Shown: positions 19,868-51,727 of the stretch, in pieces
Numbering within the stretch: the stretch's first letter is position 1
Layout of the letters: each line of letters starts with the position of its first letter
Origin: Terebella lapidaria
Taxonomy: Eukaryota; Annelida; Polychaeta; Terebellida; Terebellidae
Length of the DNA stretch: 64,000 nt
Assembly: GCA_949152475.1 (NCBI GenBank)
Contig: OX424564.1
Coordinates: 3,286,001 to 3,350,000 of the forward strand
Direction: 5' to 3'
The notes under the pieces: generated by a model
What the model was told of the DNA's origin: nothing
What the model saw: only the letters and a program-made list of their open reading frames with translations
The model's database searches: none
Program-made: the position numbers and the translations under genes

Positions 19868-22800
19868 CTACTGTCGAGTGGCACTCACGTCCCAGTAGTC
19901 ACTCTCCGTGTCTATGAAGATGTCACAGCTCTGTCGGCAGGGGGTCGTGGTCGGCACTGGAGTTGTCGTCGGCTCTGTGGTGGTGGTCGGTATGGTAGTT
20001 GTGGTGGTTGGTAGTGTAGTTGTGGTTGGTAGTGTAGTTGTGGTTGGTAGTGTAGTTGTGGTAGGTTCTGTAGTTGTAGTCGGTGGCTCTGGGGTTGAGT
20101 TCACGCCAGGTTCTACAAAGAAAGTTAAAGGACATCTCATCGCACCAATTCATAAACGCAACTCAAATTTATGAGCTTACTCTTTACCAGTACTGAATAC
20201 CATGCAAACATTACAACCACATGATGTTGGTTGTAAACTGTATTGGTATTTCCTTATGTCACAACCGACCACAAGTATCTTCACAATCCTCCTCTGTGCT
20301 GAAGCAGTTGTTCCCTGAGCAGCACTTCCACTGGTTGAGCACGGAGCAACTGTCTACACAGGCGTCGTAGTAGTAGTATTCCATGGAGTCACAGCAAGGG
20401 CCGAGGTCCACAGAGCCATGACACTCGTCAGCCAGGCGGGCGTCTGCTCGGTACGGGGCTGGAACATGATCAATACGGGGCTGGAACATGATACGGGGGA
20501 GGTCTAGTTCATGGCGGGGTCTTGTACTGAGTTAGTAGTGTCATATACCAGAGGGTTGTACCGGATGTAGGACTGTACTGACTTTGCAATAATATCCATC
20601 GTTCCAATTCAGGGGCCCACAGATTCAGCTTTGTAAACTCCAAAGCATTTAGGAAAGTGATGATTTAAATTATTTATCGAATCAGTATGTGGTTTCGATG
20701 CAATTGACAGCATTGTAATAAGCTAGAATGATCTAATCAGAAAAAAAATCAACATGTATATTTGTCTGACCATCACAAGAGTCGACACATGCTTGTTCCG
20801 TGGAGAAAACGTTGCTGTCGCGACAACATCCGGTTCCAGGCGGATACTGCACGCATGCGCACTCCTCAGCGTCCCAGTACCACACCTGGCAGAAGCGGTC
20901 GAAGATGTGGGGACAACTCTCACAGGGACCGGAGCCTGGGAATAGATGGGGGCTGTTTGTTCAAGATACGTACTCCAATAAACTACATGCGTGACAGCGG
21001 GTTACTGGTCCCCAAGAGTTCCAAAGACGAAATAAACAAATGTTTAGTTTAATGTATATCTCGAGCAAACTGACCACTGTTGCTGGAGCTGCTGGAACCA
21101 GACGAGCTGCTCTTCGATGAACTGCTCTTCCCAGAGCTCTTGGACGATGAAGTCTTTGATGACGACTTGCTCTTGGAAGAACTTTTGGATGAAGACTTGC
21201 TTGATGAAGTCTTTGATGAGGACTTGCTCTTGGAAGAACTTTCGGATGAAGTCTTGCTTGATGAAGTCTTTGATGAGGACTTACTCTTGGAAGAACTTTT
21301 GGATGAAGACGTCCCAGAAGAAGTCTTCGATGACGACTTGCTCTTCGATGAACTAGAGGAGGAGCCACGTTTCCCTGAGCTAGTCTTGGACTTGGAGGAA
21401 GAATTGGAGCCAGACTTGGAGGAACTGGAAGAGCTATCCCCTGCGACAGATAACCAGCAACATAGAACATGATGAATGTGAGAAATTTCTTGAGCTCATT
21501 CACTTGCAGTAACAATTCCTCGATATATTCCTCGATATATGGTCTCGTGTACCAGAGCTTGATCACTGTTGTTGTGCTGGCAGTATATCTTTCACCCTTA
21601 CCTCCATCTCCTCCTCCTCCGCCGCCTCCACCACCACCGCCCCCGCCTCCGCCGCCGCCACCACCTGAAAATAACATGGTCTATACTATTCCCTCCATAC
21701 CACGAAAGCCCATTAGTGAATGAAGTTGCTGAAAAGCTGTTTTGAGTTGAGAGGATTTCACCTCCAGAAGCAGGGTCGCTTTTCTGGATTTAAATCATAC
21801 GGGTATATCAACTTATTCTAATAAAGAATTTGTATTTTGCCTTGTAATTGTGCAATACCCCTGCTGTGATAGTGACTCTTTTGTTCAATCTGGGAGGTGA
21901 AATAACCACAATGATAACCAAAATGTTTGACTCACGACACTCGCGGAGGCAGTCGCGCTCGGAGGTGAAGCAGTTGTCTCCGGAACAGCACTCGTCACCC
22001 CGAAGCTGGTAGCAGCAGTCCGATTCCCCGTCGTAATAGTAATATCTTTCACTGTCACAGCACTGCTCCGTGGACACCGCCGCCTCGCAGTCCTCGGGCA
22101 GCTGCTGACCGCTTCTATAGGGCGCTGTCAGAGGAAGAGTGTCAGGCTCAAACACTTCAGTATAATCGACATATCAATGCTGCGATTTGGGTATAGACTA
22201 TCCTCGCTTTTCATCGAACAAATGATTAAGATTAATAGCCTCGCTTTTCATTGAAACAAAACCACACCCAGATTCCGCACAAAGCCTCTACTCACTGCGA
22301 CAGTTTCGCGTGCACTGCCAGCGGGAGGTGAAGGAGTTGAGCTCCTGACAGCAGCCGGTGCCCTCGGGATATCGTACACAATCACAACCCTCCGTGTCCC
22401 AGTACCAGCGTGTACAGCCCCGCGGGAACGTGCTCGGGTAGACGGAACAGTCGCCTGGATATCAGATCGGATGTGATGAGAGTGTCGTGGTTAGTTCTAG
22501 GTATTATTTCATCCTGACAGAATTCTGTCTAACCATACTTTTATGCATTTTATTAACACGCTTGATTCCCTTTGATTCAGTTGTTCTGTCAAAAAGTGAT
22601 TTCTCCTCCAAATGTGACACCACATGAAGAAAAAGCGTATCGTTTTACCTCCGTCTCCGCCGCCACCGCCGCCGCCGCCTGAAAAACAGAACAAGTGACC
22701 AACATACTTGGCAATAATAGAAGCATCAACAGAACGCGCCAATATTCCAATCATGTACATTTAATACATGCAAAAGCAATGTGGACTGTTGTTTAGATAT

Positions 22801-25325
22801 TAGATCATAGGCTGGGCGAGAAATTGGGCGGTCAGATCGGTGATAGTTATTATTTCGTCTTGGAGGAGCTGTTCTCAAACAAACCTTAATGTATATCATG
22901 AAATACGTTTAGACCTCCTATGAGTAAACTGTACTTACAGGATCGATTTTAACTCAGAATAATTATGACACGAAACATACAAAGGTGATTTGTTTTACCT
23001 CCGCCTCCACCACCGCCGCCTCCGCCTGGAAAAGAGATTACAGAGTCAAAAGAAAGTCCCAATGTTTCAGCCATCTACCTTGAGAATTAGTATGTAAAAG
23101 TGACATGAACGACGATTTTCAGAAAAAAAAACACAAATGATAGAATCGCGCTTACCTCCGCCGCCGCCACCGCCGCCGCGGCCAGAACTAGAGCTGCTGG
23201 AAGATGTTCCTGACCCCTTGGATGAGCTCTTGGAGCTCTTGGAACTCTTGGATGAGCTCTTAGAACTCTTAGAGGAAGAATTCTTGGATGAGTTGTTCGA
23301 TGAAGACTTAGAACTTTTACCAGATGAGCTTGAAGAACTACTAGATCCCTTTGAACTCTTAGAGCTCTTAGAACTGGAGCTGGAGCTGGAGTCGTCACTG
23401 CCTGCAACGAGCCATCATATCACCAGAAAAGTTCTAATTATATTTGTTTTGTTTTTATTTGATGTTTGTGAATCAAATAATTCCGGCGCTACATACCTCC
23501 GCCACCCAAAATAATAGGAGAAGCGATAGCTAAACGTTTTTGTTTCAGATAATATAGTCAAAACAAGCCACAAATCCATAGGACAAATCAATAACTTGGA
23601 ATCGTTGTAATTGACTTCAAATTGCTCATAAATTGAGCTTATATCGATGCCATTTTCATACCCTAAGTTCGGCTGAAAAAGTATATACGACGGTCAACTT
23701 ACCTCCTCCTCCTCCGCCGCCGCCGCCGCCGCCACCTCCAGCTGTCAATAGATAGAGCATCGTCGGAATACCATCTCACATCAATACATTATATTTGTTC
23801 ATTGGTGGGATACTGTACATCCATTATCCATACACAGATGCTGTCATGTAACGCCAATTACGCCATCTTACCACAGCTGTTCTCGCAGTCGGTCTCTGAC
23901 GTGAAGCAGTTGTCCCCGGAGCAGCAGCGGCCCGAGTCAAGCTGGTAACAACACCTGGATCCCGTGTCGTAGTAGTAGTACTCGCCACTGTCACAGCACT
24001 GGTCCAGGTCAGCGTCCCCCGCACACCGTCCGGACAGCCGTTCGCCTCGGTCGTACCGGTCTGTAGCAGAGTAGTCTTGGCTTAATACGAGAGTTTGATA
24101 CGAGTAAGAGGCCTCCCTGCTTCTGAATGATCATGTACCATTGTCTAACTATGGTCTCTAGGCACTTTCTATGCACTTTTGCCAATGAGGGAGTGACCTT
24201 CTGACATTGGAGTTCTAGTCACACACACCCTCCTCCCCCTCCAACCTCCTCTCAGAAGTAGTAATCATCTGTTCTTGGTAAATACAGCATGGGTAAACCT
24301 TATCAGCAATTGGAACCATGTCATTTTGTAAAACATCTAATGGATTATTCAGATCTTTATTCGAATCAAATCAGTTTTGTTTTAGGAATCGGTGGGAGAT
24401 GTGTGCATTAGTCTGTTTATCAATAATAACCTGACCAGACAACTCGTTGTGGTGGATAATTCACTGTTGAATCATTATGGCCACAATGACAGTCGCTGAT
24501 ACTCGGCGGTTCCTTGCCACGACTACTGGATGTCGCAATAACTACACTAAATCTCATTCAGAATCGTTGTTGTGGTCGCTACACTCACCCTCGCAGTTGG
24601 TCAGGCAGTCGGCGCGGCTGGAGAAGACGTTAGTGTCGCGACAGCAGCCTGTGCCCGAGGGGTAGCGCACACAGCGGCATGCCTCGGCGTCCCAGTACCA
24701 GCGGTCACACGTCCGCGCCGTGGTGGTCGGCGGGTCGCTACACTCGTCTGTTAGGGAAATCTCGCCCTTAACTAATTGTAGTCAACGTTATTACGAATAA
24801 TATTTTCGAAAAACAAAACACTTATGGCCTTTAATTCCACGAAGCGCATGCGTAATCACTGCTAAGCTTGGGTGAAGGGATTATCGACCCTAAAAATGAA
24901 CAAATAGGCTCCGCCTAAAAATAACACATATTCATAATTACCGTATGTGGCGAACACCCCGTGAAGTGCTTATAGAAAAGAAAAAATAATACAATTAATG
25001 CTATTACATATATGCAATTATGTATTTTTGAATTTTGATGTAGTCTTCGTTTGCTTGACAAGCAATATATTATGTAGACCTGTGCTATGCTGGTTGATGC
25101 AGGCCTATTGTTTGATAATACACCTGCTCAGGATTATATCAGTAGAAGTTTGTTAACTATCTATAATTGATGTTGAAATGGATCAGGATAATCCTGAATC
25201 GATCGGCCTATAGTATGGTAGATCTATGTGTTTTGTTTGATGTTTTTTTCTCCGTACACAGTTTCAGACGATGGATGATACATACCCACCAGGAGGGCGA
25301 GAGTTAGACTCAGCCCTCTCAGCAT
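19868..25325 (-). CDS. Secreted Kunitz-pair protein with poly-Gly, Ser/Lys and Thr/Pro blocks (paralogue A)
   Basis: Complete hand-built model, 14 coding exons, 2106 nt, 701 residues. In transcript order: signal peptide 25286-25325; KA 24589-24747; KB 23872-24060; Gly 23703-23741; Ser/Lys 23156-23401; Gly 22999-23025; Gly 22649-22678; KA 22296-22454; KB 21936-22124; Gly 21602-21664; Ser/Lys 21075-21440; KA 20771-20935; KB 20270-20458; Thr/Pro tail 19868-20112 with TAG at 19868-19870. Every intron is phase 1. The signal peptide is MLRGLSLTLALLV. KA and KB are Kunitz/BPTI-like folds with extra cysteines: KA has WYWD, YP.GTGCC and N.F, while KB has CCDS.YYYYD, CCSG.NCF and C...C. The tail repeats TTTT with Pro or Leu, which is mucin-like and O-glycosylatable. 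An extracellular matrix, tube, shell or adhesive role is inference; protease inhibition is uncertain because the reactive-site positions are altered. Confidence 0.82.
20459..20492 (-). other. Tandemly duplicated splice acceptor in front of the last KB exon
   Basis: The phrase 'atcatgttccagccccgta' (minus strand) occurs twice 22 bp apart, so two 'ttccag' acceptors precede this exon. Using the upstream one would add 22 nt and bring a stop codon into frame. The downstream acceptor (exon start 20458) keeps phase 1 and the 189-nt exon length. Confidence 0.75.
21075..21440 (-). other. Ser/Lys-rich exon (121 codons) of paralogue A
   Basis: Encodes almost only Ser, Lys and Thr with some Gly, in repeats such as SSSKSKSSSKTSS. 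Repetition of the DNA 'ctcatcaaagacttcatc' shows expansion by slippage or unequal exchange. Such blocks are highly charged and phosphorylatable, comparable in style to matrix and adhesive proteins. The opposite strand is also open but reads a meaningless Leu/Asp/Glu series. Confidence 0.85.
21602..21664 (-). other. Poly-Gly exon (18 Gly, then Asp-Gly)
   Basis: A 63-nt phase 1-1 exon between a KB exon and a Ser/Lys exon. Together with the exons at 23703-23741 (12 Gly), 22999-23025 (8 Gly) and 22649-22678 (8 of 9 residues Gly), it shows mini-exons that each add a glycine block without shifting the frame. Confidence 0.85.
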
Positions 25326-25625
25326 CCTGAGTTATGTTTACTCTGTAGAAGGAGAGACATCAGATCGCAATAATCAAAACTTATATATATTATTGTAAAA
25401 AGAAATGATTCGATTTAAAAAGTATTCTTACTAACACCTTCGGCATAATCATAACATTTAGTACTTCTTTTTTTTTTAGCACAATCGTATACTAAATATA
25501 TTTACTAACCTACACAAGATTTCAGAAATTTTGAGATGGTTTGGCGCCTGACCACGATGAAATCCTCTAGGTTCTAGGATCAAGTCCTCCTCCAGACCGC
25601 CTCATCCCAGCGACCTATATACTCC
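25265..25625 (-). promoter_or_regulatory. Promoter and 5' UTR exon of paralogue A
   Basis: On the minus strand a TATA box (TATATAGG, about 25614-25621) is followed ~30 bp on by a probable start near 25588. A non-coding exon then ends with donor TAG|GTTAGT at 25510/25509. The acceptor 'tctccttctacag' at about 25345 opens the exon carrying ATG at 25325-25323. I infer this from spacing and splice consensus only. Confidence 0.55.
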
Positions 25626-26059
25626 TCGTCTGCAGGTCATTACCTTAGCGGAGACAGCTTCCTCATCAGCCTAGCACAATACCAAACCACGCAATATTAC
25701 CCGCGATTATCATTAGCAGTAATATTTCAGCACACTCAGTCATTTCTGACGGGGAACCTGCCAATGGGGACAAAGCGTCAAGGTCGCTACTGACCGACTG
25801 AAAACAGCTGTGGAAGAATATAGACTCAAAACTTCGGAAGCCTCTCTGAAATCTTTCATCGAATTCATTGAATCATGAAATTTATCAAAGACGACATTCA
25901 TATTCTCTTGAAAGAAACGTTGTCGTCAATTCTAGCACTACACTGAACAAACCCTTGAGAAACTAGTATTTGACACCATTAATGATAATATACAGCGGGA
26001 AGAATTAGCCTCGATACCTATTACTGGTAGTCTAGCGGAAGCGGAAGAGGTCTGGTGTT

Positions 26060-28700: not shown

Positions 28701-28719
28701 ATCGTTGTCCAGGGCGACT

Positions 28720-29345: not shown

Positions 29346-29474
29346 AGAAATATCCCAAGAAATTTACTCCAAAATTTCTTCTGCCCAAAAGTTCTTCTGC
29401 GTTTATCCACTCCAACAACAACAAAAAAACACAATGTAATTAAATTCATGGACGTCACATGTATTTCTGACTAA

Positions 29475-30118: not shown

Positions 30119-30124
30119 TTTATT
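30119..30124 (-). terminator. Polyadenylation signal AATAAA of paralogue B
   Basis: AATAAA on the minus strand, 50 nt after the proposed stop codon (30174-30176). It supports the position of the last exon. Confidence 0.6.
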
Positions 30125-30173
30125 ATCATTCATTTTTACATGTTGTTCACGTCATCTAATCATTCACGACGGT

Positions 30174-33100
30174 TCAGGCTGAAAATATTAACATACAATT
30201 ATATTATTAGTTGTGCTATTACATATTTAGAGTTGTCTTCCAGCTTGTAAGTCCACGTTACCACCAGGCTTGAATGTACCTGTCACTACTCCACTCTCCT
30301 AACTATAACTAATGGGCCTACTATAAATACAAGATTCATAACTCACGGCAAACTTCCTCGCAGGCCGCGAGGGTCTTGAAGCAATTGTTCCCTGAGCAGC
30401 ATTGATCATCGCTGATCTTGACACAACACTTGGAGGTCGTGTCATAGCGGTAGTAAGCTTCACTGTCACAGCAGGGACTCAGGTCTACCGCCTCTGTACA
30501 CTCGGGATCCAATGGCTCGTTACTAGTGTGTTGGTCTGTCAATATGAAGTACACTAATAAACATTCGAATTACATTCAACAGTTGGTAAGAAATCATCAG
30601 GGAAATAAACGATATTCGCTCACAAATAGATCGTATTTAGTTAGAGTCTCCGAGATCCTAAGGAATTTGACCTTGAAACAGGTAGCATCAGTTGCACATT
30701 GACAACGTCCCTACGGAATTTTATAAATTTCTTCCATGGATTGTTGTTGGTATGTGTGATTCACTTTCAAGTCTGGAAAGTTGATCCTGAGAAAAGGTAT
30801 ATTTTTCCCCTTGCTCTACCATGTCAATAACTCACGTTCACATCTGCTGAGACAGTCATTCTTGGTTTCAAACACATTGGTGTCCTTGCAGCAGCTGGCC
30901 TCCTCTGGGTACTCGACACAGAGACATTTGACTTGGTCGTAGTACCACCTCCAGCAGGCGCGGGCCCAGGTGTTCGGCATCATGGTGCAGTCCTGATCAT
31001 CTGAGGAGGGAAAGCGATAAACAATGCTCACTGATTGATCAACCACATTCAACACAGGGTGAATGAATACTAATGAATGACAAGGGTGTTGGATACAATC
31101 AGAGACCATCCACGTTACTATCACAGCCATAAATCCCCACGTTGATAACCACATTTATGCATCAATAATTAGAAATCAAGAAAAAATCATTTATATTGTA
31201 GGAGTTACGAAAATCTCAAATAGACGGATGTACATGCATACATCGATCTATCACCATAAGTATAGCATGGTTTTAACGATGACAAAAACCAAGGAGAAGT
31301 TCTGGAATTGATTCAAATCTTGGCCACATACTCAAGAGCTCATGATACAATTAATATAACAAAATCGCGAACAGAATATGGCAATAAATCACCCTGCACC
31401 CAGTAATCAAAACACACACACAAAATCATTTTGAATACCATTCAAATTGGAAATTTAAAAAAAATGTTTGCAATGCATATGGCATATCGACTAAAGCTAC
31501 ACAAATATATCTAATTATCGTCAGTTATGCATTGACTTCATGAAAGGTTTAAAATATCCTTCAAGTTTTCTGGAAGGATTAATAAACCAAAAATTTTATG
31601 TTAATATGAAAGCGCCAATATGATTGATCGTACTTTTACTGCTTGATGATGAAGAATTCCTGCTGTTCCTGGAGTTCCGAGAATTTCTGGAGTTGCTGGA
31701 TGAGGAATTCCTGCTGTTCCTGGAGTTCCGAGAATTTCTGGAGTTGCTGGATGAGGAATTCCTGCTGTTCCTGGAGTTCCGAGAATTTCTGGAGTTGCTG
31801 GATGAGGAATCCCTGCTGTTCCTGGAGTTCCGAGAATTTCTGGAGTTGCTGGACGCGGAATTCCTGCTGTTCCTGGAATTCCGAGAATTTCTGGAGTTGC
31901 TGGATGAGGAATTCCTGCTGTTCCTGGAGTTCCGAGAATTTCTGGAGTTGCTGGACGAGGAATTCCTGCTGTTCCTGGAATTCCGAGAATTTCTGGAGTT
32001 GCTGGATGAGGAAATCCTGCTGTTCCTTGAGTTCCGAGAATTTCTGGAGTTGCGGGATGAGGAATTTCTGGATTTTCGTGACGAAGAAGTATTGCTGTTG
32101 GATGAGGAAGAACTGGAACTGTCATTCCCTCCAGCTGTAACAATATAGTGATATATTTTTATTTCTAAATAATGGTATACACTTCAATAGCTCCACGTTT
32201 ATAAATAGGTCATACCTGTGCTGCATCGTTTGATAATTTCTTAATCTTCAGTAATTCGCTATAATTATTTCAGAAACCAAAAAGTGGTAACGTAAGCAGA
32301 TGACATTTGACTGATTTTCAACCCCAGGGAATGACAAGAGATTTTGGTTATGAGACCATTTATCTTATACGAATTGAAGGCAAATTGACCAAGAAATAAA
32401 CGAAAATTTTCAGAAAATATGTCATGATCATAGATGGAGTGAATTTACCTTCATAATTTTCACCTTTTCAGCGAATACTTAAGTTCTGGATATCCCGATT
32501 TCCGCACGTTTTGTTCCGCTTGAGGTTACGACCTTTGAGTTTATCATGATGATCAGCATACATGTTAAGGGGTTGTTACCCTCGCCATATTTTAGTCAGT
32601 GATGCGCACTGAATATTTTTGAAAATGTTTTTTCTTGAAGAAATGAACACATATTTCACATAAATGTAATATTATCATGTTAATAACTAATTTAAAGCAT
32701 TTTACGCGCAGTTATTATGCATCTTATGTTAAAATTGGTGAAATTGACTACCAAAATTTCGGGACATCCGTTCTTGTGGAAAGAGTCGACTACGAATGTT
32801 CCAAGTATTTTTCTGAGCATTACTACATATGCTAGTTTATGAGCCGAGAAATATTTTTTTGAAATTCAAATCCATTGCATCACAAATGATTTTTGAAGTT
32901 CAGACATTTATTGACAACTGAAAATTTTTCCCAAGTGGCCAGCACAGGCACTATTTTTTAACCCTTCAAGACACTGCCACAGTGAGAGGGAGACTTCAAT
33001 ATCATATGCTCCACTGTGCACACTTCACACTGGCTTTTACATGTAGACTGCTACATGCTAGGGCTTCTGTGTGCATTGGGCCATGACACTACTCAATTCA

Positions 33101-39100: not shown

Positions 39101-42100
39101 GAGATGGAACCAACAAATGCCGTCATCAAACAGAGGCAGTCTTCACAACATAGTTTATTTATAGTACGAACCGGTTGGATGTAGCATACAGCACAGCCGC
39201 AAAAAATTCCCCCAAAGGTGAAGTGAATCGTCAATAATGACGATACCCAACAACGTGAGCACAAGCTCTGTTTAACATCATAACGTGGTTTTTGGTCTGA
39301 TGCTGCCATTTTTGGGGTTGACTAAGAATTCACAGTCTGTAAATTACCAAACGCGCGAATCTCGTCCAAATCACATCCCAAAAGGTGAGAGCTGACACAG
39401 ATGAATGGCCCGCAGACGATCCATAAAACAAACAGCTTTAAACAAACAATTTTGAAATCGCAAACAAATCCTCGAAATGCATACTAAGTACATTAAACTC
39501 CAACGATTACGATGTTATTCTCGTGAATATATATTCAACGTCCACCAGTTGAGACACGGCTCAGTGGCTGAAATGTACATAAATCGACCAAAGGCATAAC
39601 ATCATGACGATGACAAAGGGTAGGCAGAAAAAGTTATCGAATTGATTCAGAGCTTGACCACGTATTCAATAGATCATGATAGAATAAAATGAAGAAAATA
39701 GCGAACAGAATGATATGACGACATATCACCTCCCTAAAGTCATCGAGAAACACACTTGATTCACAGAAGAAATACTTCAATAGATCATACTGGAACCCAT
39801 TTAAAATGAAACTTCAAAAACTTCCACAATGCATATCGCATATCAACAATAATTACACAAAATCAATGTGGATCCAGTCATAACCAATTATGCATTGATT
39901 TACGAAAGGCCAATATATCCTTCAAATTATTTACGAAGCTGGAAAAAAACAACTAGTTTTCAATATGAATGAAAATACGATTGATTGTACCTTTGCTGCT
40001 TGATGAAGAGGAGATTCTGGACTTTCTGCTGTTTCTGCTCGAGCCAGATGAGGAAGTTCTGGAGTTCCTTGAATTTCTGGAGTTGCGGGATGAGGAATCC
40101 CTGCTGTTTCTAGAGCTTCGAGAATTTCTGGAGTTTCGGCTCCTGCTATTCGCTGAGTTCCTTGAATTTCTGGAGTTGCGAGATGAGGAATCCCTGCTGT
40201 TTCTAGAGCTCCGGGAATCCCTGGAGTTGCGGCTCCTGCTGTTCCTCGAGTTCAGGGAATTTCTGGAGCTGCTGGATGAGGAATTCCTACTATTTCTGGA
40301 GTTCCGGGAGTTTCTGCTGGCTCTGGATTTGCGTGATGAAGAAGTTCTGCTGTTGGATGATGAAGAACTTGAACTGTCATCCCCTCCAGCTGTAACAATA
40401 GTGTTATTCCAATGAGGATCAGAATAGCAGAATATGTTTGAGTCAAACTTGTAGCATCTCGACACTTACAACTTTTACATTTACGTCCACATAATCATGA
40501 CACTTGAAGGCTGATAACTTACGACAAGCTCCCTCGCAGGCCGCGAGGCTCTCGAAGCAATTGTTCCCTGAGCAGCATTGATCATCGCTGATCTTGACAC
40601 AACACTTGGAGGTCGTATCATAGCGGTAGTAAGCTTCACTGTCACAGCAGGGACTCAGGTCTACCCCCTCTGTACACTCGGGATCCAATGGCTCGTTACT
40701 AGTGTGTTGGTCTGTAAGCATGTCGAATGTACCCCATGGTAAAAGATAGGGAGGCACCACGTGCTTATCCCTAGTGTAAATGAATTCATTGTAATTTCTC
40801 ATCGATGAGTACTCACGCTTTACAGCCGTATTAATACTGGAATATTGTTCAAGTGAATTGCTGCATATTATTTCTTACATTGACATGTCAAAAACTCACA
40901 TTCACATTTGCTGAGACAGTCATTCTTGGTGTCAAACACATTGGTGTCCTTGCAGCAGCTGGCCGCCTCTGGGTACTCAACACAAAGGCATTCCACTTTG
41001 TCGTAGTACCACCTCCAGCAGGTGCGAGCCCAGGTGTCCGGCAGCTTGCTGCAGTCATGGCCAGCTTGTGGGTATATTAGTACGGTAGTTAAATAGTTTT
41101 ATATATACCGACATTAAAAAGAAACATTTATAGCAGCAATGTGCAGTGGTTAGAACTCACAGCAAACAACCTAGCATAAATCGCTTGAGAAGTGAATAAA
41201 TTCAAAAGCCCGGTCGTCTTCGCACGTCAAAGGGCACACACTCACCTATCCTGCATCTAATATTTTTTTACAAATAATTCTCCACTGAATCACGTGTATT
41301 AATATTACAGGTAATGTTATCTCCAATGGGGTTTTATATTATAAAATAACTGATGCAAATTGATTACGAACTGCACGGCTAGCAGTTGCTCTTGAAACCA
41401 CGATATATAAATCCACTTCACATCGATAAATGCAAGACATTCCATAGACATCACCCGTATTTGAAGTATATATATATACAAATATATATATGTATGGCGT
41501 ACTGGTGTCTCAACTATTTTGCAGAGCTATCCTCATTGAAATTCTGACTGTCTTGAAGACTTCGTGGTAGATGTTAAGATTATGGATGGACAACTTACTC
41601 ATCAGGGGAAATGTTCACTTTTGGTTCTTGTGAGGTCCGTGGGTCCGTTTGTAAACATTATCTCCCATGCTTAGTGGACTCGTTTTATGTGTTCTGTGGA
41701 CGTGTGTGGTAACTAAATACTTCTGCTAGAGCCATATTATCTCATAGCTATGAACCAGACCAATTAATCTAGATCTGTTATTTTACAGAGGTGTGAAACG
41801 TACCTACTTACAACAGATAATCAGTTTGGTTTCAAGAATGGTCACCCAACTGATCAGTGCATCTATGTTTTCTGTGTTTGTAACATTTCTAGATACTTCA
41901 AAGGCATTCGATAGAGTTAATTACTGGGTTTTATTTGAAAAACTAACATTCATGGGAATGTTCCTCTTTTTATCGACAAATTGTTGACTTACTGGTATTG
42001 TGCACAACAAATGTGTGTACAGTGGGGGCGCACAACATCAGAGACATTCACTGTAACAAATATACAGGGTGGTATTTTATCTCCAAAATTGTTTGCTGTC

Positions 42101-45100
42101 TACATGGATGACTTGTTGTTTTGAATAGTTCTGATGTTGGTGCTGTCATCGGTGGCCGAATGGTGAATCATCAACTTTATGCAGATGACGTGTGCCTAAT
42201 TATTTCATCTTCAGCTGCTATGCAAAGACTTAGATGTATGCAGTCAGTATGCATCAGCACATGACCTGATATTTGATATAGATAAAAAAAAGATGGAACT
42301 GAACCTATGTGTGTCGACCAGTGTGAATATCTTTGGATTATCATTTATGGGAACTCAATGATGTAGAAAGACAATTGAGAAAGTTACAAGCTAACGCAAA
42401 TATACTAATTCGTAAATTCACTCATTGTTCAACAGATGTTCAAGTTACGCTTTTCAAGTCCTACTGCACAAACATGTATTGTCCACAATTTTATAGAGCA
42501 TCAAAAACTGCTATGAACAAACGTAGGATTAGTTACAATAATAGCTTGAGGAAATTGCTGATATTACCTAAGAACAATAGTGCAAGTAAAATGTTTGTAT
42601 GTCTAGGTGTGAAATCATTTGGTGAAGTATTGAGAGGTATTATCCTAGGTTTTATGGAAAGGATAAACCAAAGTAACAATTTGATTATACGCAGTATTGT
42701 ACATTCACAGAGTAACCAATCTGCTTTAAGGCACTGGTGGAACAGCATTCTAAATGTGTAGTACTCAACTGCTTGGTTTGATAGTCAATGTCATTTGTCA
42801 TATATATGTGGCGATTTTGCCCTAAGATCGCGGCAGGTGATTGTAAAACTACATGCCATTTATGTGGCCTTTTCTGTCTTGGCCTTGTTTTGACACGCTC
42901 CGTTCGAGCGGGCGTTGCTACGGCGACGCATTGTAATTTACGTTATCCAGTAAACTATAACAATGGTTTGATTACGCTTCGCGTGCAGCCTCTAGTTTCT
43001 GGTGTATTATATATACACTGGAAACGACTCGGTCGAGGAGATTGTCCAAGGTCGGGTGACAGGCTGCACTCGAAGCTCGCCATGAGCTTTGAGTTCCCTG
43101 GTCATGAGTAGTGGGCTCTTAGAGCCCTGGGGACGATTTTCATAGGGGGGCCCGGGCTGGGATAGACAAGTTGCTGACTCGGGGGCGCAAGCCCTGTGGA
43201 TCGCCAGTTCTCTCCCTTCCCGGGACGATGTGACATAGGCTCTGGCCAGTTCGTCGGACTGTACGGGGTTCCGTCCCCGAGGCAGACCGCAGCTCGCCAG
43301 GCCCCTCCAGTTAACACCGTGGTGATGAACCAGTTTCTGAACGGTGTCCGTAGGCCTGGGCGTGTCGGGTGGGCTGTTACCTGGTTACCGTAAATGCTAG
43401 AGTGGTTACCGTGTCCGCAGTGACCTCCGGTGAGCGGCACCGCCGCAAGGATCCTTAATAGCGGATGCGCGTCCGCAAGGACTCGCGGTGAGAGGACTAT
43501 CCTCGAGGATCCCGGAGCGGACGATAGTCAATAACTTTACATTGGTGCCGTGACCAGGATCAGTCCGACAGCGTTCCATTGCAGCCTAAAGTCACAGTGT
43601 CGTTAGCCTCCTTCGTCCCTGGGGATCGCCCGCTCCTCAAGGACAACTCAATCGGAAGATGACAAAGGAGAGAGATAAGAAAGAGAAAAACAATGAACCC
43701 AAGGGGAGGGAAATGGGTGGTAACGTCGCGGACCGCACCCGGTCGAGCGACGAACGCCGTGAGACATCTTCGGGTGACTCCGGCGGTAGTAAGGTACGCG
43801 AGGAGACCTCCGTAGACAGAACCCAGTCTGCGGAGTCGACTCCGGCGTCCCTGACTCTGTCTCCGGACGTAGAGTCGGGCCCCGCGGGGCCGCAACCGAT
43901 GTTGCCATCAGGGCCTAGCCCTGATCCGTTAGACGCAGTAGGTGGAGCTGGAAACGGCTTTACACCGCGCCCGCCTAAGTCCGGACGGGGGTCGTGGCAG
44001 GTGACACTCTTTCATGGGACATCTCCGGATGTCCGGGATCGAGTGGACGCTGGCGCGAGCACCTCCGGACAAGCGGACCAACGGTACTGGATGCCATCTC
44101 CGGCCAGAGGAGCTCCTGCGAGGGCTCCCGGCGGGGATTCCAGGCGGTCCGCATCAGGCAGAATGGACCAGCTCACTAATACCCTAAGTGCGCTGGCTCC
44201 TTTAGGGCATTATGACCGCGCCCGGTCGCCCCATCAGGGACGATCAGACCGGCGGAACCGTTCACCCTCTCCGCAGTCACAAGGCAACTCGGGGCCTTTG
44301 ACGGAGAGGGAGAGGTGGCTGATATCCGAGGCGCTTGAACAGTTCAAGCAGAATCAGCCGCCTCCGAGCGTCGATCCGTCGGCCGTTTTTAGTCTGGGGA
44401 TGACTGGGCCCATGGCCCCTCCCCAAGTCCTACCGAGCCTGCAGGCGCCAGTGGCCCCCGCAACGGGATCCGCGCTTGCTCCGCGGCTCGGAGGCACCAC
44501 GTTGGCAACTGCGTCGACCGTCCCAACGGTTGGAGCGCAAGCCGCGTGGGCGACTTACCCTGGCGCACAAAGTGTGTCGGACGGGCAGTGGCAACAGGTG
44601 GCTTCGGCCCCGAGCTATGCTAGCTTTGCCGCCCCATCTGGAGCCTACCCAGTAGGTTCGATGGGAGCCCCGCCCGCACCCAGCCAGGGTGGGTTTTTAG
44701 CGGGAATGACCCCGGCGGCGAGCGTGAGCTTTCCTGCTCCTATGTCCGCGGCGTCGATGTTTGCTCCGGCAGACTCCGCCACAGGCACGGGTAGCTCGCG
44801 GGCCTTGCCGCTTTACACGGACGACCCCGGAGCCGGAACTGCACGTCGGGCGCGCAACAAACATGATGACGGGCCCGACCACTCTTCGTGGCGGAAAAGG
44901 TTTAACGGGGATAACGCCGACTTGGAAGACTACCTACTCCAAGTGCGGCGGACCGCCGTGTACGAAGGATGGACCCAGCAGGAAGCTGGGCATGTCCTCG
45001 CGGGGAGCTTGGAAGGAAAAGCTCTCCGCGTTATGCAGTGTTTGCCGGTGGGAACAGTAACCTTCGGCGAGGTTGCCTGTCAACTTCGCTTGCTGTTCAC

Positions 45101-48100
45101 GCCGACTACCAACAGGCGGCAGTTTGAACGGGAGTTCAAAGCGCGAACCCGCCTACCGACTGAGTCCGTGACAGACTATGCGTTTAACCTGCGCATACTC
45201 GGCCGGAGAGCTTATCCGGACATGGACGCCAGGCAGTTTGAGACGATGCTGATCGATCAGTTCATCGATGGCCAGCCTTACCACTTATCATACGGGCTGG
45301 CCACCCATGAAAAGCGATCGATGGAGGAGGCGATTTACTCCGCACTTGCGCTAGAGGTAGCTGTCCGCCCTAGACAGTTGCCTCCGGCCCCGGCTCCGGC
45401 CTTGGCTGTTCCCGCGCAGGTAGGCGACCCCTCCTCCGGCCAAGGCATCGCAGGTAGCCCCGTGGCAGGACCCGGTCGTCCGGGAACCCGCCAGGGAACC
45501 TACCCCGCAGTGGGTTAGTGCGCCAGCACCCTCCACAGGGATGCCCGCACATGTGGCACCAGTCGCCGCGCCGTGCTCGTCCTCGGACGAGTGCGACATG
45601 GAGGAATACGATTTCGGTGCCGCGCAGATGATTGCGCACTGCGCCGGGATCAAGCTCCGGGACCCGTAGAATGTTGCGCGTTCACCTCCGGACCAGCCCA
45701 GAACCGTCCCTGTTACTTCTGCGGAAAGCAGGGACACTTTTGGCTGAAGTGTCCAGAGTTGTTGGATACCAGGGAGCCCTCCCTGGCCCGCAATGGAGAA
45801 ATTCCTTCCAGTCTGGTCCTCCGGGACAGCAAGGTCGGAACCCGCGGCAGGGAAACTAGATCCGGATGTGGTGGCGATTAATACTACGTCCGGGGACAGT
45901 TGTTCCGTGGCATCAGATGCCGCCCCACCCGCTGATGGGCAGGACGAACCTCAAGTTGATATGACTTCTCCGGAAGTAGTCCTTGGGGATCAGTCTGTGA
46001 GGACTCCGTAGATGAGCCCAGCGCGTGCGAACGGTATCGCCCTACCTGCGCACTGGTGAGGGACCCCTGCTGGTACCTGCCCCTGTCCTTCGGACAGGAG
46101 CCGGTCCGGTTCCTCGTGGACTCTGGCTCGGAGGTGACCCTCGTTGCCGCAGGAACGTTTAGGAAGGAGCCCGCGCTCCGCAACCTTGAGTTGCGGGATC
46201 CCGGACCCTACAAGCTCTACTGAGCGGGTGACAACTGCATCCGTACCCACGGTATCATCGACCTGCCTATTACCCTTGGGGACAAGGTGTATCTGACAGA
46301 GGCAATCGTTGCGGATATCGGAGCGGCCGGGATTATTGGGATGAATTTTCTACGGGTCCACCGGGTGATCGCCAACTTTAGTGCGGGCGAATTCCGGATG
46401 GGAGAGGACACAGGGATGGCTCCATTCCAGCAAGCCGCGGATTCGTCCTCAGACTCGGAATTGGACGTCCCGGGGAGACCGCAGGCCGCCGCCCCCTCTA
46501 ACAACACGGCGGCCGGAGCGTATAGGGCTCATCTCCGCGCGCAGAGCCGCCGATATCGGCGAGGGCGTCCCGCATATGAACTGGAGGTGCGGCTCAGCTC
46601 CAGCGAGTCCTCCTCGAGTCCAGCGGTGTACTCCTCTTGGGTGCCCTCGTCCTCTGGCGAGTCTGAGTATGAGCGGTCCTTGCCCCCTGTGGTAATGGCC
46701 GCTGCGGCGCAGCCGGACGCGGCAGATGAGGAGCCTAATTACTTGGGTGGCTACTCTCCGGCGCAGATAGCTGCGAAGCAGAGAGCTGACAGTGCTCTGG
46801 CACCAGTAATCACAGCCCTTGAGGCCGGCCAGAAACCCTCTAAGGATGAGCGGAAAACCTACAGGGAGGAGACTTTGTATCTAGTATCCCAGTGGGAAAC
46901 ACTCTCGTTGAGGGATGGCCTCTTGTACCGGCGCTATGAGCCACCGACCCCACTGCCTCCAATAGGGCAGTTGGTGCTTCCGGCGGAGCTGCAGAAAGAA
47001 GTACTCCACCAGTTGCATGACCTCCGGTTGAGCGGTCACCTGGGAATCCGGAGGACCGTCCATAGGCTACAACAGCGCTTTCATTGGCCTGGTAGCAGCT
47101 TGGACGTGCAACGGTGGAGCGCAGCCTGCCCTCGGTGTCAAGCTCGTAAAGGAGTTCCGGCTCCTGGCCGCCACCCCTTAACCACGGTTAAGGCGGGCGC
47201 GCCGTTTGATCGGATAGCTTTGGATATACTGGATACCCATCGGGTCACCCCGCGCGGTTTCCGGTACATCCTGGTGATTTCCGACTATTTCACCAAATAT
47301 ACCGATGCCTACCCACTGCGCTGCTAGACTGCGGACGAGGTAGCACGGTTGCTGGTGAATAGATGGGTGGTGTACCATGGGGTACCTAAGCAGGTACATT
47401 CAGATCAGGGCACGCAATTTGAGAGCAACCTGTTCCGGAACCTAGCACAGATGCTAGGCAGTACCAAGGTGCAGACCACCCCCTACAGGCCCCAGTCTGA
47501 TGGCCAGGTCGAACGCTTCAATCGATCGGTCCTCAATATGCTGGCGGCCTTTGTGAACGATCGTGCGAATGATTGGGATGACCACCTCCCGTATATCTTA
47601 ATGGCGTACAGGTCGTCGGTCCACTCTTCGACCGGAGTTACTCCGCACGCGATGTTGTACGGCCGGGAACTAAATCTGCCCATGGATATTATGTATCCAA
47701 CTGCGGCAGAGACCGGCGCAGTACCCCAGTGCGGTCCGGAGTACGTGGAGTGGGGAACACCCATGATTTCGCGCGCGCGCGCCTGGACAAGTCTGCTATC
47801 CGGCAGAAGCGAGGCTATGACGCCCATGCTAAGGGTAGGCCCGCTTTTGCGGAAGGAGACAAGGTGCGCTACTATTATCCGCCGCTTAAGCAAGGTAATA
47901 AATTTGCTAAGCCGTGGATAGGCCTGTTTACAGTGCTTAAACTGGTTACGGACGTGGACTACCGGATCCGGAGGGACTCCGACCCGGATCGGGTTCTGGT
48001 GGTTCACATTGATAACCAGAAGAAGTACGAGAGCCCGCTTGTCATGGATCCGCTCGTTCAAGATGCGGAACCGGATGATGCTCCTTTACTGGATCCGTCC

Positions 48101-51100
48101 GGTCAGCATCCGCGGATGCGTCCCGGGGACCACGTGCGCCGTCCCGGTATGGGTGGGAATAACATTCCGCCCATGCGGATGCGTCTGCGGTACCCGTCTA
48201 TCACACTAAGGACGGGTTTTAGGTCGTTCCGTGAGAGTCCGCACGACTTACCCACGCGGGTGGCTACTTTGTGGCTATCTCCGGGGTTGAGGTCCGCGGA
48301 TACTTTCATGTCGTAACGCCGCCGCTCCGCATCCGCCCTCCCGTAGTTTTCAGCGCTAGTGATGTGCGGCAACCCTATCCGCATCAGTTCGCCTGTAGTC
48401 CGGCGTAGTTAACACAGCGGCTACGTTGGCCGGACGACTTTTGTGGATCTGCCGGACGCCCCTGGTCCCGGAACAGCCTCTTAAGTGGCCAGACTGAGGT
48501 TGGGATTTACGTCCGCTATGGGAGAAGCGCCTTCCCACGGATTTGGGGAACTGGCTTTGGACGCGGTGATAGTGTCCGCACGTGAAGACTGACGTCCGCG
48601 GTTCGTCCGCGCGAATCGTCCGGCGTCCGGGACGCTTTAAGATGATACACTTCGGTGTAGTTATCCCCCGTGCGCCATTACTATAATTAAGGTTATAGTA
48701 AGTTTAGGTTTCTAACGGCAGGAAACCGACTTTCCATTATGATAATGGAGCGGTTGTTAAGTCCGCGTGTGCGGACCAGCCGCGGCGGCGGGTGACGCTC
48801 ATTCTCGTCCGGATCGTACCTTATAATACGCGGTCCGGCCGGAATGACCGGAACCCCGGCCTCCTTCTAAGAAGGGGGTCATATATTACATGCGCAACAC
48901 TTGTGGTGGATTTTAATTCCAATATCATATTCATTGGATAAGGGCAATACGCCATTCTATGGTAGGCGTCCGGCCTGGACTCCGTCCGCAGGCAGCTCCG
49001 GACGTCCGCCGGCTATTGCTTTCACCATCTTTGGGCGCCTCTAGATTGATCGCCGGCATGAAGGGTTCGCCCCCTACCATTGAAGTTATGGCCCATGCCG
49101 GCTTCGCGTCTAATCTATTGGCTCCGCGCTCCGGTAGTCGTTTGAGGAGGCTCTGGGTTGGACCGGGCACCGCTCCGTGGCCGGGCTGTACGTCGGGGTT
49201 GCTAGTGGGCGTCTAGCTAACGCCCATAGGGCGCCCGATTGTCGGTCCGGACGTCATGGGTATGTCCGATCGCCTTGTAAGCGTACCAGCGGCTATGGGG
49301 AGTGATTTTGTTTATTTTCCATCTCATTTATTATTTATGGGAGGAATATAAGCCACAAGTGTGCGGCATGTCTCTGGAGAATTCTGTTCTTGCCCATTTA
49401 ATGACACAAAGTGAGACAAGTATGTGAAATTTCCTTTCCGGTGCAATAGAGAGTAAGAAATCGGGAGATTTCTGCTTTCGCTAGAGGGGTGTAAGGGATT
49501 GCGCTAATTTTGACAGTGACGGATTGCTGTGATATTTGAAAAGACTGGAGAACGGCAATTTATTGTTGTTTTCGTCTGACATATTCGTAACAACCACAAA
49601 GTAATGGTTACTGTCAATTTTATGCCCAATTTCTACCTTGCTGGGGTGATTAATTTTACGTCATTTACCGCCGGTGCGGACGCAAAAGCGATTGACTAAT
49701 CTTAATTACTGAAGTTATTTGCAAGGTCCCCCGGGATAGAAATTTATTTTCTACCCGTATACATGGTTTGATTTGGAGTCACCGGAGGGAAATGACTGCC
49801 TCCGCATGAGTTTTATGGTGTTTGTATGTTGGTCTGGCAGTGTGTCAGTATGACCGGGGACAGAGTTTTGCAGCGGCAACGCATGCATTGCTGTGCGTGT
49901 AGTATAGCTGTCATCATTTGTTACATGTATATATATGTAAAAATGTCGTACCCGGATTATTTGTTAATCTCCAGATGTTTGGCGCATGTGTTTTGTGCCA
50001 CTCGCATTTCGTCCGCTGCTGCGGCGCTGGATCCCGCGGGATCCGCGTGGCCGGTGTTCGAGATGCGGATAATTTTTGCCAGTTGTACTCCCCATGCGGG
50101 CGGTGCTGGAGATGTGCGGGCGGGCGGGCGGGCGGCTGCATGTACGTGCGGACGTCCGTCCATCTGCGTGTCTTTACACTGGCCTGTGCGGGTTGTAGTA
50201 TACAGATACTGGCAGTCGATGCGGCTTGCTACTGCGGCTCCGCCCTGCCTCAGATCCGTTCTGCGGATTTTTAGAGGTAACACTTTTTAGAGGTACTACC
50301 ACTTTTGATCAATCGGTGTGTCGTTTTACAAAATTTCTAAATTTAAAGTTTAACCTTAAAGATATTCCAAAGACTCGACACACCGTCCTTTTATAATGGA
50401 TGACCTTCCAAGGTCATCACACGGTTTTGGACCACCTCGGTCAAAATTTTAGCTTGTTTATGAGGGTTTATTCAAAATTGCAAAGCGCGTTATAGTTTAC
50501 TCCGTAAGTCCGGGGTAGTTTCCCATTCTTCCAAAAGGGACTCTTAAAGTCCTAGTGTTTTGCGCCGTGATACTTCCGGGCGTTGCCATCTTGCCTTCTT
50601 CCGGCCCCGTCATCAGAAGCCTTCGTCGGGTTTCGATCATTTTGGGCGCGGGCGGAACATTTTGGGGACCAACATTGTAAGAAGGGGGTAATGTGGCGAT
50701 TTTGCCCTAAGATCGCGGCAGGTGATTGTAAAACTACATGCCATTTATGTGGCCTTTTCTGTCTTGGCCTTGTTTTGACACCCTCCGTTCGAGCGGGCGT
50801 TGCTACGGCGACGCATTGTAATTTACGTTATCCAGTAAACTATAACAATGGTTTGATTACGCTTCGCGTGCAGCCTCTAGTTTCTGGTGTATTATATATA
50901 CACTGGAAGCGACTTTGTCGAGGAGATTGTCCAAGGTCGGGTGACAGGCTGCACTCGAAGCTCGCCATGAGCTTTGAGTTCCCTGGTCATGAGTAGTGGG
51001 CTCTTAGAGCCCTGGGGATGATTTCCATAGGGGGGCCCGGGCTGGGAGAGACAAGTTGCTGACTCGGGGGCGCAAGCTCTGTGGATCGCCAGTTCTACCC

Positions 51101-51727
51101 TTCCCGGGACGATGTGACATAGGCTCTGGCCAGTTCGTCGGACTGTACGGGGTTCCGTCCCCGAGGCAGACCGCGGCTTGCCAGGCCCCTCCAGTTAACA
51201 CCGTGGTGATGAATCAGTTTCTGAACGGTGTCCGTAGGCCTGGGCGTGTCGGGTGGGCTGTTACCTGGTTACCATAAATGCTAGAGTGGTTACCGTGTCC
51301 GCAGTGACCTCCGGTGAGCGGCGCCGCCGCAAGGTTCCGGAATAGCGGATGCGCGTCCGCAAGGACTCGCGGTGAGAGGACTATCCTCGAGGATCCCAAA
51401 GAGCGGACGATAGTCAATAACTATACATATATATATATATGTCTTTTCATGGTTTACGTGTCTGTCTGTAATCATTTCACATCCTGTTTTCTATTGTTTT
51501 CATACATGTTTCATGTTATTCCGTGTCTGAAATAAACCTTATAATTAAAAAATAAATAAATGAAGAAATAAGACACATTAAGACATCTTCAGAACTAATA
51601 TATTTCAGAAATAATTCATTCAAGACTTCTAGTAGGGGCGGTATGTATGAGAGAACTCAAACGGGGTTTCTCTACCTGCAGCGACTGACACTGTGACAGC
51701 CAGTAAAGCATAACACAGCAGTCCCAT
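30174..51727 (-). CDS. Secreted Kunitz-pair protein with Ser/Arg/Asn-rich blocks (paralogue B)
   Basis: Complete hand-built model, 10 coding exons, 2019 nt, 672 residues. Signal peptide 51676-51727 (MGLLCYALLAVTVSVAA); KA 40900-41064; KB 40523-40711; SRN 39991-40389; KA 38622-38786; KB 36540-36728; SRN 31634-32134; KA 30836-31000; KB 30347-30535; last exon from 30178, adding Pro and TGA. All introns are phase 1. KA exons are all 165 nt and KB all 189 nt. KA has eight Cys (C-x10-C-x9-C-x-C-x8-CC-x11-C-x3-C) with WRWYYD. KB has ten (C-x8-CC-x13-CC-x7-CC-x4-C-x6-C-x3-C). SRN exons read SRNSRNS with SSSS. The first intron (~10.6 kb) holds a LINE fragment and a Gypsy element, and a SINE lies in the KA-KB intron at 37.3 kb. 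The tiny last exon is the least certain part. The function is inferred to be in extracellular matrix or adhesion. Confidence 0.8.
31634..32134 (-). other. Ser/Arg/Asn repeat exon built from a 51-bp minisatellite
   Basis: About 7.5 copies of a 51-bp unit encode a 17-residue repeat (RNSSSSNSRNSRNSRNS and variants). The exon keeps phase 1-1 and 501 nt. The unit contains no stop in two minus-strand frames and one plus-strand frame, which explains the spurious overlapping open frames here. The sister exon at 39991-40389 is the same type but less regular, with Asp and Gly interruptions. Confidence 0.85.
32200..36500. other. Long intron of paralogue B with no recognised element
   Basis: AT-rich intron between the second SRN exon and the second KB exon. 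I see no transposon protein, tRNA-like core or minisatellite. Short frames at 34730-35201 show no domain. Confidence 0.4.
36875..37315. repeat. Direct repeat, ~75 bp, 363 bp apart
   Basis: The block containing 'taagaatcaatctattacca' and 'ccaatatagccaaatttt' occurs at about 36876-36952 and 37239-37315 with a few differences. The second copy ends just before the SINE. Confidence 0.85.
37343..37606 (+). mobile_element. tRNA-derived SINE with (ATT)n tail
   Basis: The 5' part is a class II (Ser/Leu-type) tRNA-like head: 'tggccgagtgg' A-box, 'gggttcgatcccc' B-box and a closing 'gtcaccggca'. A ~150-bp body ends 'cgttaaacaaatctg' before (att)n. The 3' tail suggests mobilisation by a LINE with a matching end. 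It lies in an intron of paralogue B. Confidence 0.85.
41790..42770 (+). mobile_element. Degraded non-LTR retrotransposon fragment
   Basis: RT motifs are spread over several frames: LDTSKAFDRVN (palm), then GGILSPKLFAVYMDDLL, and LYADDVCLI (YADD active site). A C-terminal frame at 42333-42761 has LRKLQANANILIRKF and HWWNSILNV. Frameshifts and stops break it into at least three pieces, so it is an old dead LINE. It sits in the first intron of paralogue B and abuts the Gypsy 5' LTR. Confidence 0.8.
42807..43541 (+). repeat. 5' LTR of the Gypsy element
   Basis: 735 bp, TG...CA ends. It matches the 3' LTR and the solo LTR at 9.9-11.8 kb. Confidence 0.92.
50692..51427 (+). repeat. 3' LTR of the Gypsy element
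   Basis: 736 bp, preceded by a purine tract and followed by (AT)n, so its outer edge falls in simple sequence. Confidence 0.92.

What the first reader, a model, noticed from the sequence alone, without database searches (positions are those of the whole stretch)
19868..51727. Two paralogous genes for modular secreted proteins: Kunitz pairs joined by low-complexity exons
Seen: two minus-strand genes, each with a signal peptide and three copies of an ordered pair (8-Cys KA, then 10-Cys KB Kunitz-like domain). The linkers are Gly, Ser/Lys and Thr/Pro blocks in one gene and Ser/Arg/Asn blocks in the other. Every intron is phase 1, exon lengths of each class are nearly constant and both coding totals divide by three (701 and 672 residues). 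Known: phase-1 symmetric exons allow exon shuffling, and Kunitz domains with Gly/Ser-rich blocks occur in invertebrate matrix proteins. Inference: this is an extracellular structural or adhesive protein family whose physical properties are tuned by swapping linker exons while the cysteine-rich knots are kept. I do not recognise the combination.
Basis: partly seen in the sequence, partly recalled or inferred. Interest (0 to 1): 0.85.

Follow-up and report, generated by a model that had tools for sequence, protein, structure and literature searches.

The report
Worm genes: Kunitz knots on polymer linkers
A segmented worm carries a cluster of genes for secreted proteins in which small cysteine-rich knots, probably retired protease inhibitors, are strung between repetitive glycine-, serine- and charge-rich stretches encoded by separate exons, which looks like a building kit for a slime, glue or tube material.

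Summary
Two minus-strand genes (25325-19868 and 51727-30174) each encode a signal peptide and three ordered pairs of divergent Kunitz-like domains joined by low-complexity exons; every coding intron of both models is GT-AG and phase 1. Gene 1 probably has one more 9-residue exon (15 exons, 710 residues). PF00014 is listed for 12 of 12 domains but passes its cut-off in 2. The canonical inhibitory loop is missing. The genome is an annelid's.

The genes belong to a cluster: three related pairs begin 48 kb beyond the window's end. One relative alternates nine 60-base Arg/Pro/Ser exons with nine Gly/Ser exons, all phase 1. The 60-base exons are 99.6% identical, the introns beside them 84.5% with gap columns left out. 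So linkers change by whole-exon duplication.

Best reading: a secreted block polymer of acidic disulfide nodes and mostly basic, presumably disordered linkers, for mucus, cement or tube lining. Expression and function are untested, and structure prediction did not confirm the fold. Ten literature searches showed me no such architecture. New variant of a known kind.

The parts
25286..25325 (-). gene 1 exon 1: start and signal-peptide core
   Evidence: ATG, donor GT, phase 1; TATA-like sites upstream at 25621, 25389 and 25387
   Evidence: 27 bases, AG..GT, phase 1; supplies the cleavage region
24589..24747 (-). gene 1 exon 3: KA copy 1, 8 Cys
   Evidence: PF00014 22.7 bits, cut-off 21
23872..24060 (-). 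gene 1 exon 4: KB copy 1, 10 Cys
   Evidence: PF00014 16.5 bits, below cut-off
23703..23741 (-). gene 1 exon 5: Gly linker
23156..23401 (-). gene 1 exon 6: Ser/Lys then Gly linker
   Evidence: 50 Ser of 82 residues, net +11
22999..23025 (-). gene 1 exon 7: Gly linker
22649..22678 (-). gene 1 exon 8: Gly linker
22296..22454 (-). gene 1 exon 9: KA copy 2, 8 Cys
   Evidence: PF00014 15.2 bits
21936..22124 (-). gene 1 exon 10: KB copy 2, 10 Cys
   Evidence: PF00014 13.3 bits
21602..21664 (-). gene 1 exon 11: Gly linker
21075..21440 (-). gene 1 exon 12: Ser/Lys linker
   Evidence: 80 Ser of 122 residues, net +22
20771..20935 (-). gene 1 exon 13: KA copy 3, 9 Cys
   Evidence: PF00014 17.7 bits
20270..20458 (-). 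gene 1 exon 14: KB copy 3, 10 Cys, one shifted
   Evidence: PF00014 25.1 bits, over cut-off; shift seen
19868..20112 (-). gene 1 exon 15: Thr/Pro tail with a 2-Cys end, stop
   Evidence: a similar tail read by eye in the relative near C11:3412350
51676..51727 (-). gene 2 exon 1: signal peptide
   Evidence: ATG, phase 1; TATA-like sites upstream at 51939 and 51840
42806..51397 (.). LTR retroelement inside intron 1 of gene 2 (not part of the protein)
   Evidence: two 300-base blocks repeated at 99% and 97% identity, 7885 and 7884 bases apart; retroelement-like frames on + strand by eye
40900..41064 (-). gene 2 exon 2: KA copy 1, 8 Cys
   Evidence: PF00014 17.8 bits
40523..40711 (-). gene 2 exon 3: KB copy 1, 10 Cys
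   Evidence: PF00014 15.4 bits
39991..40389 (-). gene 2 exon 4: Ser/Arg/Asn linker
   Evidence: 63 Ser of 133 residues, net +29
38622..38786 (-). gene 2 exon 5: KA copy 2, 8 Cys
   Evidence: PF00014 13.4 bits; an unrelated family is listed above it at 13.7, also below its own cut-off
36540..36728 (-). gene 2 exon 6: KB copy 2, 10 Cys
   Evidence: PF00014 16.6 bits
31634..32134 (-). gene 2 exon 7: Ser/Arg/Asn linker with a 51-base tandem repeat
   Evidence: 80 Ser of 167 residues, net +35; 8.3 repeat copies
30836..31000 (-). gene 2 exon 8: KA copy 3, 8 Cys
   Evidence: PF00014 16.8 bits
30347..30535 (-). gene 2 exon 9: KB copy 3, 10 Cys
   Evidence: PF00014 16.6 bits
30174..30178 (-). gene 2 exon 10: last codon and stop
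   Evidence: AATAAA at 30124 and 30057

Best explanation
The two genes belong to an annelid gene family for secreted material proteins. Each chain is a block polymer. Acidic, disulfide-knotted Kunitz-type domains, which lack the canonical protease-inhibiting loop and carry two to four extra cysteines, act as compact nodes. Long Gly, Ser/Lys, Ser/Arg/Asn or Thr/Pro stretches act as spacers and, where basic, as the oppositely charged partner. Shown by sequence: predicted exon structure, domain order, charge pattern, missing canonical loop, and serial duplication of linker exons in a relative. Inferred: the linkers are disordered; after secretion the chains condense by attraction between acidic nodes and basic linkers, with possible serine phosphorylation as a switch and possible disulfide or tyrosine cross-links, giving a mucus, cement or tube lining. 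Because node and linker exons are phase 1 at both ends, linker exons can be duplicated or exchanged without breaking the frame.
For: Exon models, phase 1 throughout, closing frames. Kunitz relationship: PF00014 listed for 12 of 12 domains at E up to 0.1, 2 of 12 over cut-off. The KB profile's 60 shown PDB matches (of 99) are all chains that I recognise as Kunitz-bearing, best bikunin (whole-chain E 3.3e-6) and SmCI (1.3e-5), aligned to KB without gaps; the KA profile's best is bikunin (2.3e-6), from the middle of the domain on. Loop: KB has Cys-Cys-Asp where SmCI's third domain has Cys-Lys-Gly, in 6 of 6 copies; the first KA is two residues shorter than BPTI there and the other five have the same length. 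Contrast: 17 domains found by exact canonical spacing in loci L001-L008 each have 6 Cys and a GGC motif (the pattern itself favours canonical domains). Charge: KB net -6 to -10 and KA 0 to -7, against +11, +22, +29 and +35 for the four long Ser-rich linker exons. Relatives: pairs at C11:3397989-3398560, 3424280-3426402 and 3459104-3461346, each with a signal-like exon ending in phase 1 (by eye). One has nine 60-base Arg/Pro/Ser exons alternating with nine Gly/Ser exons of 63-72 bases. Identity with gap columns left out: 60-base exons 99.6%, first 51 bases of the Gly exons 94.1%, introns before and between them 84.5%, sequence after the Gly exons 50%.
Against: No RNA, proteome or assay. The fold was not confirmed: single-sequence model pLDDT 55.9, 11-sequence model pLDDT 69.9 and pTM 0.49, Foldseek's best match at E 5.3. 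10 of 12 domains score below the PF00014 cut-off; the genome-wide PF00014 search lists none of them among its 57 matches; a canonical-motif scan of the window missed them. dN/dS among gene 2's copies is below 1 in 6 of 6 comparisons but on few changes, with dN/dS up to about 0.8. The mature gene 1 chain is acidic overall (pI 5.0) and gene 2 basic (pI 9.0), with cleavage sites that I assumed, so one charge recipe does not fit both. The search for linker exons in the relative looked only for phase-1 exons, and offered an alternative acceptor or donor for some. The 60-base exons are almost identical at silent sites too, so gene conversion or a constraint on the DNA may contribute; protein selection alone would not do that. 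Disorder was not computed.
Confidence: 0.6

Rival explanations
1. They are multi-headed Kunitz inhibitors of microbial or digestive proteases, tethered in mucus by their linkers.
For: Kunitz relationship; the carboxypeptidase inhibitor SmCI is among the best PDB matches; a putative Kunitz-type inhibitor stands in a table in the tube section of the Paraescarpia genome paper (PMC8476170, passages).
Against: KB carries Cys-Asp where SmCI's third domain carries Lys-Gly, in 6 of 6 copies; KA's loop is shortened. Inhibition by another surface is not excluded.
Confidence: 0.15
2. They guide mineral or chitin deposition, with Ser-rich blocks phosphorylated to bind calcium.
For: A Kunitz protein is listed in abalone shell matrix (PMC6003135, passages); Ser makes up 24-26% of both chains; phosphoserine and FAM20C kinases are reported for sabellariid cement (PMC12621633, abstract and passages).
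Against: The Ser-rich linkers are basic before modification. Whether this worm mineralises anything is unknown.
Confidence: 0.12
3. They are venom or toxin-like Kunitz proteins.
For: Kunitz toxins such as dendrotoxin appear among the KB profile's matches, as do many non-toxins.
Against: Chains of 650-690 residues with polymer-like linkers and serially repeated linker exons in a relative do not resemble short secreted toxins (general knowledge).
Confidence: 0.04
4. The exons belong to several genes, or the low-complexity frames are not translated.
For: No transcript; low-complexity DNA is open in several frames here.
Against: Phase-1 sites and closing frames across 15 and 10 exons; mixed TCN and AGY serine codons; linker exons more alike than their introns in a relative.
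Confidence: 0.07

Closest known systems
Kunitz/BPTI domain (Pfam PF00014)
   Same: Sequence profile and cysteine framework; an Asn and a Phe after the double cysteine are invariant in the 11 domains aligned
   Different: 8-10 cysteines instead of 6; no canonical reactive loop; 10 of 12 copies under the curated cut-off; predicted fold not confirmed
SmCI, three-domain Kunitz carboxypeptidase inhibitor (PDB 4bd9; from the annelid Sabellastarte, recalled)
   Same: Three Kunitz repeats, gap-free alignment to KB
   Different: 165 residues, with no room for long linkers; lacks KB's extra cysteines in the aligned stretches
Sabellariid tubeworm cement proteins (Pc and Sa series)
   Same: Annelid secretions with basic Gly-rich repeat proteins and phosphoserine-rich proteins (PMC12621633, abstract and passages)
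   Different: The word Kunitz occurs 0 times in that paper (count); here different blocks are exons of one chain
PRIT glue proteins of frogs
   Same: Folded domains alternating with disordered repeats in a secreted glue (PMC11237159, passages)
   Different: IgGFc-binding domains, an unrelated fold; vertebrate
[quoted passage not shown]
   Same: Kunitz protein in a secreted structural matrix (PMC6003135, passages)
   Different: Mollusc; the passages I saw mention no alternating linker exons

Membership tests
Kunitz/BPTI (PF00014) | Score over the curated cut-off of 21 bits | tested here: inconclusive
   2 of 12 window domains over (22.7 and 25.1), the other 10 at 13.3-17.8; of the relatives' 6 domains I scanned 4, and 3 of 4 are over
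Kunitz/BPTI (PF00014) | Six framework cysteines in order | tested here: met
   Six or more invariant cysteine columns in the 11 domains aligned of 12; gap-free for KB against SmCI. The second framework Cys is placed ambiguously in KA
Kunitz/BPTI (PF00014) | Kunitz fold | tested here: inconclusive
   Models of pLDDT 55.9 and 69.9; Foldseek's top match is boophilin (Kunitz, recalled) but at E 5.3
Functional Kunitz protease inhibitor | Canonical reactive loop | tested here: not met
   KB Cys-Cys-Asp in 6 of 6, KA loop shortened in 6 of 6; activity itself not assayed
Sabellariid cement proteins | Homology to Pc or Sa proteins | not tested
   No such sequence was fetched; the likeness is of composition only
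Secreted protein | N-terminal signal peptide | tested here: met
   By eye only: hydrophobic start and small-residue cleavage region in both genes; no predictor was run
Phase-1 modular extracellular proteins | Modules on symmetric phase-1 exons | tested here: met
   23 of 23 coding introns of the two models; linker exons of a relative, where only phase-1 exons were sought

The most novel reading that the evidence does not exclude
A genomic kit for protein block copolymers: in this annelid a retired protease-inhibitor domain, stiffened by extra disulfides, became a generic acidic node, and material properties are changed by serially duplicating whole phase-1 linker exons that encode polymer segments, so that one gene cluster makes several materials from the same node.
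Probability: 0.45. Interest if true: 0.75.

Novelty: new variant of a known kind. Interest (0 to 1): 0.57.

Why it matters
Low-complexity protein segments are usually thought to grow by slippage inside one exon (general knowledge). In the relative next door, polymer segments are separate exons copied as units, and they stay more alike than their introns. That would let exon duplication change the composition of a biological material step by step. The cluster is a natural set of variants to compare: similar nodes, different linkers.

Tried and rejected
Mollusc origin (byssus, shell) was my first assumption. I dropped it after seeing the mitochondrial gene order nad3-nad2-cox1-cox2-atp8-cox3 on one strand (genes recognised by eye, and that this order is typical of annelids is recalled) and an exon that matches giant extracellular haemoglobins, best 41% identity (28 of 68, counted by eye) (one exon was searched). 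A second globin exon is best matched by dehaloperoxidase (that this enzyme is from the terebellid worm Amphitrite is recalled), a hint only. Naming the species by assembly size failed (listing only: none of the 16 papers holds the term 761.6).

Active inhibitor: rejected as the leading idea because the canonical loop is missing. A canonical Kunitz motif scan gave no hit in either gene, and the PF00014 genome search listed 57 matches, none in the window: the domains are divergent.

Fold confirmation: two AlphaFold jobs and one Foldseek search gave no confident fold.

Literature: ten searches, seen as listings with the starts of abstracts; passages from PMC8476170, PMC11237159 and PMC6003135; abstract and passages from PMC12621633. 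I saw no description of this architecture there. Most subscription papers are not held.

A first version of the exon-against-intron comparison counted gaps as differences (introns 67-79%, Gly exons 74-85%). One search repeats it for 8 of the 9 units, the first being set aside because it aligns poorly, with and without gap columns.
Full report
What is there. On the minus strand, gene 1 runs from 25325 to 19868 and gene 2 from 51727 to 30174. Gene 1 has 15 predicted coding exons and 710 residues. Gene 2 has 10 coding exons and 672 residues. All 23 coding introns of the two models are GT-AG and phase 1. Each gene has three KA-KB pairs. KB exons are 189 bases in 6 of 6; KA exons are 159 bases in two and 165 in four. 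TATA-like sites stand upstream of both genes (25621, 25389 and 25387; 51939 and 51840). AATAAA follows gene 2 at 30124 and 30057; for gene 1 the only such site between its stop and 18500 is at 18929, about 940 bases on.

Domains. PF00014 is listed for 12 of 12 domains at E up to 0.1, but only 2 of 12 reach its cut-off. For gene 2's second KA an unrelated family is listed slightly higher, also under its own cut-off. Profiles of six copies each find Kunitz structures in the PDB at whole-chain E 2.3e-6 (KA) and 3.3e-6 (KB). KA and KB match each other over 35 columns (hhalign probability 90%, E 1.8e-6 for this pair). KB aligns with SmCI without a gap; where SmCI's third domain has Cys-Lys-Gly, KB has Cys-Cys-Asp, in 6 of 6 copies. 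The first KA is two residues shorter than BPTI in the same loop, and the other five KA copies have the same length there. I infer that neither inhibits serine proteases in the standard way. For contrast, 17 domains found by exact canonical spacing in eight loci of the same genome have six cysteines each; that pattern favours such domains. Structure prediction did not settle the fold. The alignment behind the second model held 11 of the 12 domains; gene 2's third KB was left out.

Linkers. In gene 1 they are Gly, Ser/Lys and Thr/Pro; in gene 2 Ser/Arg/Asn. The four long Ser-rich exons carry +11, +22, +29 and +35; KB carries -6 to -10 and KA 0 to -7. With cleavage sites that I assumed, mature pI is 5.0 and 9.0. 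Serine is written with both TCN and AGY codons, which slippage of one codon would not give. Gene 1's mature chain has 57 cysteines by the exon counts, an odd number, so at least one is free or pairs with another molecule (inference).

History. Gene 2's three pairs are young copies of each other (dS 0.05-0.30). Gene 1's copies, and the two genes, are far apart (dS 0.6 to saturated). dN/dS among gene 2's copies is below 1 in 6 of 6 comparisons, on few changes.

Surroundings. The genome has 761.6 Mb in 438 contigs. The mitochondrial contig has nad3-nad2-cox1-cox2-atp8-cox3 on one strand (genes recognised by eye). One extracellular globin exon matches giant haemoglobins, best 41%. I call it an annelid; that the gene order is typical of annelids is recalled. 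In the three protein searches, relatives with E below 0.001 lie only on contig C11 between 3.305 and 3.462 Mb. Five weaker matches elsewhere (E 0.017-0.098) fall on or beside ordinary PF00014 matches. The tool scores only the best candidates, so counts are lower bounds. Beyond the window there are three pairs: at 3397989-3398560 and 3424280-3426402 on the plus strand and at 3461346-3459104 on the minus strand, that is, 48 to 111 kb past the window's end. Each has a signal-like exon that ends in phase 1 (by eye).

The relative at 3.398-3.412 Mb is the most telling. After its pair come an Arg/Pro/Thr-Ser exon and then, in strict alternation over 12.3 kb, nine Gly/Ser exons (63 or 72 bases) and nine 60-base exons reading IRRPGFSSSQGHTSSKSRL, AG..GT and phase 1 at both ends; a tenth Gly frame follows without a donor that my search accepted. 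The search looked only for phase-1 exons and offered an alternative acceptor or donor for some. A Thr/Pro stretch with a two-cysteine end follows and resembles gene 1's tail by eye. For 8 of the 9 units (the first aligns poorly), mean pairwise identity with gap columns left out is 99.6% for the 60-base exons, 94.1% for the first 51 bases of the Gly exons, 84.5% for the 100 bases before, 84.5% for the intron between, and 50% beyond the Gly exon. The 60-base exons are nearly identical at silent sites too, so gene conversion or a constraint on the DNA may add to selection on the protein. The minus-strand relative has an exon, 738 bases by its best donor, with Thr/Pro/Lys/Arg, Ser/Lys and Arg/Gly/Val repeats. 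The third relative was only partly read: a short Gly/Ser exon follows its pair.

Reading. The family keeps a disulfide-rich node (acidic in the window genes; not computed for the relatives) and varies the linkers by duplicating and exchanging symmetric exons. The likely use is a secreted material whose parts attract each other by charge. Parallels that I saw in print: phosphoserine-rich and Gly-rich repeat proteins in sabellariid cement (PMC12621633, abstract and passages); folded domains alternating with disordered repeats in frog glue (PMC11237159, passages); a Kunitz protein in abalone shell (PMC6003135, passages) and one in a table in the tube section of a tubeworm genome paper (PMC8476170, passages). 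None has this architecture in what I read. What is not known: where the genes are expressed, whether the predicted exons are spliced together, how the cysteines pair, and which species this is.

Verdict. It is a new variant of known kinds (Kunitz-based and low-complexity secreted proteins), not a new category.

Noticed in passing
window 42806-51397: LTR retroelement in gene 2's first intron, its longest frames antisense to the gene by eye, with end blocks 97-99% identical, so probably a recent insertion.
   Followed up: partly
window 55202-59679: Further retroelement-like frames (reverse transcriptase and integrase by eye) on the plus strand.
   Followed up: no
window 1112-2089: Reverse-transcriptase-like frame, LINE-type by eye.
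   Followed up: no
window 314-907 and 62544-63137: Two arrays of a 172-base tandem repeat, 3.5 copies each, whose consensus units look like reverse complements of each other.
   Followed up: no
G000 contig C4: Many nearly full-length globin matches in single frames, with groups near 31.2-31.4 Mb and 40.5-40.7 Mb: a large, apparently intron-poor globin expansion.
   Followed up: no
G000:C417:44633-46450: A second cox1-like stretch with TGA codons, besides the mitochondrial contig C438; nuclear copy or foreign DNA.
   Followed up: no
L009-L020 and L026-L036: These fetched loci lie inside the window itself and add no independent evidence.
   Followed up: yes
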